Of a stretch of 64,000 nucleotides of DNA, positions 16,001 to 17,558 are shown piece by piece. Every line of letters begins with the position of its first letter. Position 1 is the first letter of the stretch. The stretch is taken from NCBI RefSeq assembly GCF_949628265.1, contig NC_088786.1, positions 13,330,001 through 13,394,000 on the forward strand. Reading direction: 5' to 3'. The notes under the pieces are model-generated. The model was not told the DNA's origin. It saw only the letters and a program-made list of their open reading frames with translations, and made no database searches. The DNA comes from Cloeon dipterum. Lineage: Eukaryota > Arthropoda > Insecta > Ephemeroptera > Baetidae. Made by a program: the position numbers and the translations under genes.

Positions 16001-17357
16001 GCGCGAGTGTCATATCGGCCGCCCAAGTTGCGCTTGGCTGCAGTCCCCGCGCGAAATCACGCTCCTCCATCACGACTTGGCTGCGAGAAATATGCACGTG
16101 GCGTCTGGGAAATGCGATATTGATGGTTACTTTGTTTGTCCAATCATGCCTGTTGCATTCATTGAGCGTTTTTATCGTTTTTATTTAACAAAGGGGAGCT
16201 GATGGTGGCGAGGAAACTAGTCTCGTTTAAAAAGCCTTTCATATAGTGGTCTTTAAAAGCTTTTTGTCAAGAATAATAAATAGTATTTCAAACTGATTCA
16301 AACTTCTCTTGCAGTGAGTTTTTGATTCAACAATAAACATCACACATACATGCCTTTATATTAGCTTTTTTCTATCGGACCAAAAGGAAAGGAAGATTTT
16401 TGCTCTTTTGGACCATCAAAATTTCTACCGAGAAAAATAGCTTAAGCTTGGCATTATTTTTTGCTCACACTTTTCATCACTTGCATTGACCATTGACTCA
16501 GCACGGTGCTTTCACCTCGCACATGCATAACATAGCAACGCGTAATTGCAATAAAATACCCATCGGATTTGCGGCTATGCAGCTCCCTCGCTCTGTTATG
16601 ATTATCGCCAACACAAATACGCGCAGATAGGCAGCAAATACAAATAAATAAACGCAAACCGAGCACGGTCTGGTGATTCGCAGGAAAAACACGGCGCATA
16701 CAAAGCGGAACGGAGTCGGAGAGGTCAGGCACACACGTTGCAATAACAAATCGATAAATCTCGTCCGATTTCTCTGTCTCTCTCTATCCAGTTTATTTGA
16801 ATAGAAATAAAAAGCAAACCCCTCCTTGCTCTGCGCTCGGTGATTTATTTGCGTGCGTGGCTACTTCTGCGAAACGGAGAGAACGAGACTAAAAGGTGGA
16901 TTTCTTGGTGTTTTCACAGGCAGATCACAAAAGAGCTGATGGACCTCCTTAATCAAGATCGCTCGCCGCTGTGCAACACCCGGCCGCAGATCATCTTGGA
17001 GCCAGGCATCCAGCGTCACCTAACACACTTTTCGCTCATCACACATGGCTTCGGCAGCCCGGCTATCGTCGCCGCACTCACAGCGATCCAGGTAACGATT
17101 AAGTTGTAATAATATTTTTTTACCAAGTAAATTGAAAAAATGAAAATCAAAATTTGTTACAAAACTTCTCGATAGCCATTTGCACGCCTTTGATTGATTT
17201 TTTAACAAAGAGTTAAACAACTGCCCTCTATTTGCAGAACTTCCTGAGTGAGAGTCTGAAGCACCTGGAGAAGGTTTACCCGAGCGGCAACTCGCACGTG
17301 TCTGTCACCTCATCGCAGAATCTGGACACGAAGCCCAAGGACCTGGACAAGAAATGA
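7008..17357 (+). CDS. TfAP-2: Transcription factor AP-2, C-terminal half (5 exons)
   Basis: Exons: 7008-7244, 10621-10739, 15735-15876, 16920-17091 and 17238-17357 (TGA at 17355-17357). All junctions keep frame with GT-AG sites. AP-2 proteins are nuclear factors that bind GC-rich palindromes as dimers through a basic region plus helix-span-helix. Visible signatures in order are [86 protein letters not shown] and [16 protein letters not shown]. Together these cover the conserved DNA-binding and dimerisation domain to the C-terminus. The N-terminal transactivation exons are absent from the window, so this is partial at the 5' end. The start of the first exon (CAG ending at 7007, or AG at 7010) is the least certain boundary. 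The frame stays open beyond the TGA (see next entry). Introns of 3.4, 5.0 and 1.0 kb suit a regulated developmental gene. Confidence 0.95.
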
Positions 17358-17558
17358 GGTTGGCTAAAGCGGGCCGGCAGCAGCGGCTCGTCTGCGTCGT
17401 CGCACGCGCCAAATCACCACGGCAACAGCGGCGGCGGTAGTTACGTGGAGCCGCCCCCGGGCGCCCCTCTGCAGCCGCCCCCGCCACCCCCGCACCATCC
17501 ACTGGTGCACCCGGCGGACGCACTGTCCAGCCGCCGCTCGTGGGAGCACTTCAAATAA
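17358..17558 (+). CDS. In-frame 66-codon extension after the AP-2 stop (candidate readthrough)
   Basis: After the AP-2 TGA the same frame runs without a stop for 66 codons to TAA at 17556-17558. The predicted tail starts GWLKRAGSSGSS, has a His/Asn/Gly-rich middle, a PPPGAPLQPPPPPPHHP segment, and ends SSRRSWEHFK. Nearly all third positions are G or C, although most surrounding non-coding DNA is AT-rich; this is how coding sequence in this window behaves. The stop context is AAA-TGA-GGT, not the TGA-C favoured in known insect readthrough. Readthrough is an inference. Alternatives are an exitron or alternative 3' splice site that removes the TGA, a recently gained stop, or a GC-rich 3' UTR that is open by chance. 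Confidence 0.5.
   Translation, partial: GWLKRAGSSGSSASSHAPNHHGNSGGGSYVEPPPGAPLQPPPPPPHHPLVHPADALSSRRSWEHFK

What the first reader, a model, noticed from the sequence alone, without database searches (positions are those of the whole stretch)
17238..17558. AP-2 frame continues 66 codons past its stop: possible readthrough or alternative C-terminus
The sequence shows TGA at 17355-17357 followed by 66 in-frame sense codons to TAA at 17556. The extension has GC-rich third positions, Ser/Gly/His/Pro-rich composition with a six-proline run, and a basic/aromatic end (SSRRSWEHFK). It looks like a disordered protein tail rather than AT-rich UTR. Established knowledge: many insect neuronal and regulatory genes undergo stop-codon readthrough, usually with UGA-C contexts; here the next base is G. 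A tail would alter AP-2 interactions. Weak internal GT/AG pairs (for example 17298...17369, 72 bases) would also allow an in-frame exitron removing the stop.
Basis: partly seen in the sequence, partly recalled or inferred. Interest (0 to 1): 0.85.

Follow-up and report, generated by a model that had tools for sequence, protein, structure and literature searches.

The report
Possible readthrough tail on AP-2
Just after the stop codon of an animal AP-2 gene, a 66-codon stretch in the same reading frame still looks like protein code, which suggests that ribosomes sometimes run past the stop and add a flexible tail to this regulator.

Summary
In detail: the AP-2 last exon (17238-17354) ends at TGA 17355-17357 and the frame stays open for 66 codons to TAA 17556-17558. 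Openness alone proves little, because the block is 72% GC and 2400 of 5000 shuffles of it are also open. A codon model trained on exons of this window favours the AP-2 frame: +3.2 against -15.6 and -8.2, reached by 9 of 2000 open shuffles. In its controls 14 of 28 coding stretches and 1 of 150 presumed non-coding ones reached p<=0.05. A dinucleotide model agrees; three simpler periodicity tests do not. High GC and coding signal both fade at the TAA. The tail has no ATG, no splice site that scores like the real ones and no Rfam SECIS match. Stop-codon readthrough is the best explanation (about 0.55). The UGA-G context and the RNA folds are not typical of it. No relative was found in the collections on offer, which are not of animal genomes, so conservation is untested. 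If true, it is a new member of a known kind.

The parts
16920..17091 (+). penultimate AP-2 coding exon ([17 protein letters not shown]...ALTAIQ)
   Evidence: Pfam PF03299 E 7.5e-15 together with the next exon; PDB AP-2alpha and AP-2beta E 4.4e-27 and 8.8e-27
17238..17354 (+). last AP-2 coding exon up to the first stop ([12 protein letters not shown]...KDLDKK)
   Evidence: acceptor score 5.52; the AP-2beta alignment reaches query residue 93 of 96
17355..17357 (+). first stop codon TGA, context AAA-TGA-GGT
   Evidence: sequence
17358..17555 (+). 66-codon in-frame extension, Pro/Ser/Gly/His-rich, candidate readthrough tail
   Evidence: open frame; codon and dinucleotide phase models; no ATG in any + frame
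17359..17378 (+). small predicted hairpin with a one-base spacer after the stop (7 bp, -9.8 kcal/mol); absent from the best folds of the first 60 and 80 bases
   Evidence: 9 of 200 shuffles of the 22-mer fold as well; the 22-mer was chosen after seeing the fold
17556..17558 (+). second stop codon TAA
   Evidence: sequence; GC change point 17548, support interval 17537-17554
17559..18600 (+). AT-richer presumed 3' UTR up to a candidate poly(A) signal AATAAA at 18573 (others at 18404 and 18426)
   Evidence: GC 0.445 then 0.31; signals

Best explanation
The 198 bases after the AP-2 stop are protein-coding in the AP-2 frame. They are most likely reached by stop-codon readthrough: some ribosomes decode the UGA with a near-cognate tRNA and add about 67 residues. 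This gives a minor AP-2 form whose dimerisation domain is followed by a flexible Pro/Ser/Gly/His-rich tail that could change its partners or activity. Shown: the open frame, the codon-level signal in that frame, its fading at the TAA, the lack of an ATG and of a splice site that scores like the real ones. Inferred: translation itself, its rate, and any function of the tail.
For: Codon model (1893 training codons from this window): +3.17 in frame 0 against -15.59 and -8.19; 9 of 2000 open shuffles reach it. With AP-2 exons left out of the training p is 0.018. In the same test 14 of 28 coding stretches (own gene left out) and 1 of 150 presumed non-coding open 198-mers reach p<=0.05; the 8 GC-rich ones among the latter, all from 61.3-61.7 kb, give 0.197 to 1.0. 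Dinucleotide phase model: +1.09 against -4.67 and -1.89; 30 of 1500 open shuffles and 109 of 2662 overlapping genomic open 198-mers reach it; its frame call was right for 26 of 27 coding pieces. In 90-base windows stepped by 30, frame 0 stays positive from the known exon across the TGA (2.72, 4.03, 1.55, 0.64, 0.57, 4.27, 3.66, 2.12) and is -0.11, -6.31, -6.41 in the next windows, which overlap the TAA. GC changes at 17548 (support 17537-17554). No ATG. [quoted passage not shown]
Against: The context is UGA-G, and UGA-C is the leakier one (PMC8417969, passages). Three of five coding statistics are null: Fourier period-3 853 of 2000 and phase chi-square 612 of 2000, mononucleotide phase model 832 of 2000, with frame 2 as good as frame 0 (-1.29 and -1.30). 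The dinucleotide support weakens to 68 of 1500 shuffles and 164 of 2662 genomic 198-mers without AP-2 training, and with GC3-rich training the frame-0 score is itself negative (-0.46), though best (21 of 1500, 36 of 2662). In the second half of the tail frame 0 barely leads frame 2 (0.79 against 0.39), and 237 of 3678 presumed non-coding windows show a lead as large as that of the whole tail. Structure after the stop is ordinary for its composition (z -0.52 to -0.75 for 60, 80 and 100 bases). No relative was found, so there is no conservation evidence.
Confidence: 0.55

Rival explanations
1. The block is GC-rich 3' UTR that is open by chance and is not translated.
For: 2400 of 5000 dinucleotide shuffles of the block are open. 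With the GC block kept in place, 36.6% of 20000 mononucleotide shuffles first stop at or beyond the TAA position and 11.4% within 8 bases of it. Period-3, chi-square and mononucleotide tests are null. A second GC-rich block without a Pfam match lies at 61.3-61.7 kb.
Against: Codon and dinucleotide models favour the AP-2 frame, at 0.0045 to 0.045 against open shuffles and up to 0.062 against genomic 198-mers; presumed non-coding stretches seldom pass the codon test (1 of 150). The signal and the GC both fall at the TAA.
Confidence: 0.3
2. The tail is coding but is reached by splicing: an exitron that removes the TGA, or an alternative acceptor inside the tail.
For: 19 in-frame GT/AG pairs exist, and the acceptor ending at 17474 (CCCCTCTGCAG) scores 1.54 and is in frame with the donor at 17092.
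Against: Coding signal is present upstream of 17475, which that acceptor would not explain. The matrices are recalled approximations, not trained on this species.
Confidence: 0.09
3. The UGA is recoded as selenocysteine, or edited to UGG.
For: The codon is UGA, and UGG would be one A-to-I change.
Against: No SECIS family match in 16900-19500 even at E<=5, where only two sub-threshold miRNA matches appear, nor in the window at gathering scores. In the folds that include the stop it lies only in short stems, not in a long double strand. Other SECIS search programs were not available.
Confidence: 0.02
4. The TGA is a recent nonsense mutation or a sequencing error in a protein that normally ends at 17555.
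For: It would leave the same coding signature without readthrough. The solved AP-2beta chain and my query both end near this point, so that search could not show what lies beyond.
Against: AP-2beta homology runs to query residue 93 of the 96 before the TGA, and from recall vertebrate AP-2 proteins end within a few residues of it. The tail alone has no Pfam match and only an unrelated PDB match at E 0.42.
Confidence: 0.04

Closest known systems
[quoted passage not shown]
   Same: A developmental transcription factor with a C-terminal extension beyond an in-frame stop; the extension is disordered and of low complexity except at its end (PMC8417969, passages).
   Different: dfr uses UAG-C and a stem-loop shown by mutation to matter (PMC13170385, abstract). 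Here the stop is UGA-G and no stem-loop that meets their definition is predicted. dfr is shown in vivo; this is sequence only.
PhyloCSF readthrough candidates of Drosophila and Anopheles (PMC5100048)
   Same: A coding signature in frame 0 after a stop that a downstream ATG or a splice site does not explain.
   Different: Those rest on multi-species alignments; here there is one sequence and single-genome tests. AP-2 and TfAP do not occur in that main text; its supplements were not read.
AP-2alpha and AP-2beta C-terminus (solved structures)
   Same: The same C-terminal region of the domain up to within 3 residues of the first stop (AP-2beta).
   Different: The tail alone finds no AP-2 chain in the PDB, but the solved chains end near that point, and vertebrate 3' UTRs were not examined.

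Membership tests
Stop-codon readthrough gene (criteria as seen in PMC5100048) | In-frame second ORF, at least 10 codons for the single-genome test | tested here: met
   66 codons; the 10-codon limit is from the passages
Stop-codon readthrough gene (criteria as seen in PMC5100048) | Protein-coding evolutionary signature (PhyloCSF) across relatives | not testable with these tools
   no relatives found in viral contigs or genome contigs
Stop-codon readthrough gene (criteria as seen in PMC5100048) | Positive single-genome coding score in frame 0 | tested here: inconclusive
   positive in codon and dinucleotide models, null in three simpler tests. These are my own substitutes; the Z curve score itself was not computed.
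Stop-codon readthrough gene (criteria as seen in PMC5100048) | Signal not explained by a downstream ATG, alternative splicing, the opposite strand or a SECIS | tested here: met
   no ATG; weak splice sites, though a MaxEnt score of the acceptor at 17475 was not available; minus frames 0 and 2 are mostly open but all three minus frames score negative over the whole tail; no Rfam SECIS
Stop-codon readthrough gene (criteria as seen in PMC5100048) | Leaky stop context such as UGA-C (an enriched feature, not a required one) | tested here: not met
   UGA-GGU
Stem-loop-stimulated readthrough (dfr type) | Stem-loop of at least 35 nt, terminal loop 3-10 nt, no bulge above 2 nt, in the first 60 or 80 nt | tested here: not met
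   60- and 80-nt folds read by eye against the definition in PMC13170385 section 22
Selenoprotein | SECIS element in the 3' UTR | tested here: not met
   Rfam only
TF_AP-2 (PF03299) | Pfam match above the gathering score | tested here: met
   55.8 bits against a cut-off of 23.4 for the last two exons joined

The most novel reading that the evidence does not exclude
AP-2 has a regulated, conserved readthrough isoform with a disordered tail of about 67 residues. The tail would tune the partner choice of this developmental regulator, and its UGA-G stop, without a classical stem-loop, would point to a readthrough signal not yet described.
Probability: 0.15. Interest if true: 0.65.

Novelty: new member of a known kind. 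Interest (0 to 1): 0.42.

Why it matters
AP-2 is a conserved developmental regulator (established knowledge). A longer form made by readthrough could be missed by gene models that end at the first stop, and could act differently from the normal protein. A UGA-G stop without a qualifying stem-loop would also be a useful test case for what makes a stop codon leaky.

Tried and rejected
Relatives. Searched without any relative found: the penultimate exon in viral contigs and genome contigs, the tail in viral contigs only, the 7.1-7.2 kb exon in genome contigs and viral contigs, the 15.7 kb exon in viral contigs, and 32 residues of the 10.6 kb exon in plasmids and phages. The last exon itself was not searched in these collections. 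None of these collections is of animal genomes, so the negatives say nothing about conservation.

Exitron and alternative acceptor: disfavoured by splice-site scores. Selenocysteine: no Rfam SECIS. Independent ORF: no ATG. Antisense ORF: minus frame 0 has one stop near its end and minus frame 2 one at its first codon, but over the whole tail they score -2.91 and -3.47. RNA structure as stimulator: not significant; the 22-base hairpin was picked from a longer fold, so its 9 of 200 is not a fair test.

Limits of the statistics. I ran five coding statistics: Fourier period-3, phase chi-square, mononucleotide phase, dinucleotide phase (three training sets) and codon. Two favour coding. Period-3 reached p<0.05 in 13 of 19 coding 198-mers. 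The codon test passed only 1 of 7 stretches of the unidentified Lys/Ser/Pro-rich gene, so it misses some coding sequence. Its 150 non-coding controls (of 481 found) overlap one another, and 'non-coding' there means introns, intergenic DNA and 61-63.8 kb as presumed by me.

AlphaFold of the last exon plus tail, with TGA read as W and no alignment: mean pLDDT 61.4, pTM 0.19, helices of 4 or more residues only at 2-13 and 36-39, block means of 67 and 75 around the prolines. This fits disorder but is no proof. No fold search was run.

Papers. TfAP-2 with readthrough, 0 papers; 'transcription factor AP-2' with 'stop codon readthrough', 0; a four-term search with AP-2, 0. Neither 'AP-2' nor 'TfAP' at a word start occurs in the held main texts of PMC5100048, PMC3840789, PMC13170385, PMC8417969 or PMC4999894. 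PMC3227100, which I took from recall to be Jungreis 2011, is not held, and candidate tables in supplements could not be read. AP-2 may therefore already be listed somewhere.

Full report
What is there. The window carries the 3' part of an AP-2 gene on the + strand. Coding exons lie at about 7105-7245, 10616-10741 and 15731-15862, recognised by recalled AP-2 motifs, and at 16920-17091 and 17238-17354. The last two together match Pfam TF_AP-2 (E 7.5e-15) and the solved AP-2alpha and AP-2beta chains (E 4.4e-27 and 8.8e-27). The AP-2beta alignment runs to residue 93 of the 96 that precede the TGA. My query and that chain (240 residues, aligned to 237) both end there, so the search cannot show what follows. 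From recall, vertebrate AP-2 proteins end close to this point, which makes a recent nonsense mutation unlikely.

The extension. After TGA 17355-17357 the frame is open for 66 codons to TAA 17556-17558. It has 13 Pro, 11 Ser, 8 Gly, 7 His and 6 Ala of 66 residues, no ATG in any + frame, no Pfam match, and only one unrelated PDB match at E 0.42. GC is 72%; within the 64 kb only one other place, 61332-61635, reaches that over 198 bases. GC falls at 17548, with a support interval of 17537-17554, directly before the TAA.

Is it more than chance? Openness alone is not: 2400 of 5000 dinucleotide shuffles of the block are open, against 96 of 5000 for the first 198 bases of shuffled downstream UTR. With the GC block kept in place, 36.6% of 20000 mononucleotide shuffles first stop at or beyond the TAA position, and 11.4% within 8 bases of it. 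Three simple tests are null: Fourier period-3 (853 of 2000 shuffles at or above observed), phase chi-square (612 of 2000), and a mononucleotide phase model (832 of 2000; frames -1.30, -3.07 and -1.29). Period-3 reached p<0.05 in 13 of 19 coding 198-mers, so its null result is weak evidence.

Two richer models, trained on 27 coding pieces of this window (5679 bases) and corrected for overall composition, do separate the frames. The dinucleotide phase model gives +1.09, -4.67 and -1.89, and negative values in all three minus frames over the whole tail. It called the right frame for 26 of 27 coding pieces left out in turn. But 237 of 3678 presumed non-coding windows show as large a lead, and in the second half of the tail the lead is small, 0.79 against 0.39. 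Among open shuffles 30 of 1500 reach the frame-0 score, and among overlapping genomic open 198-mers 109 of 2662. Without AP-2 training the figures are 68 of 1500 and 164 of 2662. With GC3-rich training they are 21 of 1500 and 36 of 2662, at a frame-0 score of -0.46 that is still the best of the three.

The codon model gives +3.17, -15.59 and -8.19, with 9 of 2000 open shuffles reaching the first, or p 0.018 without AP-2 training. Its calibration: 14 of 28 coding stretches with their own gene left out, and 1 of 150 presumed non-coding open 198-mers (of 481 found), reach p<=0.05; the 8 GC-rich ones among the 150 give 0.197 to 1.0. In 90-base windows the frame-0 dinucleotide score stays positive from the known exon over the TGA and falls below zero in the windows that overlap the TAA.

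How it could be reached. The best acceptor inside the tail (exon start 17475, score 1.54) would not explain the coding signal before it. Selenocysteine: no Rfam SECIS match. Readthrough is what remains. The stop is UGA, the most leaky of the three (PMC8417969, passages; PMC13170385, section 18), but it is followed by G instead of C. Downstream structure is ordinary for its composition and does not meet the stem-loop definition of PMC13170385 section 22. [quoted passage not shown] At least 5% of mosquito and 6% of fly stops are estimated to be read through (PMC5100048, passages).

Limits. No relative was found in the searches made, none of which covers animal genomes, so the decisive test, conservation, was not possible. 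Candidate lists in supplements could not be read, so AP-2 may already be listed.

Verdict. Readthrough is the leading mechanism (0.55) and untranslated GC-rich UTR the main rival (0.30). If true, this is a new member of a known kind.

Noticed in passing
17319 (+): A fair alternative acceptor (exon start 17319, score 2.97) inside the last AP-2 exon would drop 27 codons in frame and keep the same TGA.
   Followed up: no
17554-17559 (+): An AATAAA overlaps the second stop codon; whether it is ever used as a poly(A) signal is unknown.
   Followed up: no
61311-61660: The only other place with GC of 70% or more over 198 bases; long open frames on both strands, no Pfam match in the two ORFs tested, and p 0.197 to 1.0 in the 8 stretches from 61.36-61.72 kb tested with the codon model.
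   Followed up: partly
25105-28942 (+): ORFs of a Lys/Ser/Pro-rich protein; three pieces tested give no Pfam match above its cut-off; unidentified.
   Followed up: partly
30780-36982 (-); 39103-39414 (+); 40490-41379 (+); 44743-47002 (+); 54012-57041 (-): Neighbour genes: aconitase family (IRP1-like from recall), NUDIX-like (below the Pfam cut-off), zinc-binding dehydrogenase, BEACH-WD40, and a phosphodiesterase closest to PDE1B.
   Followed up: partly
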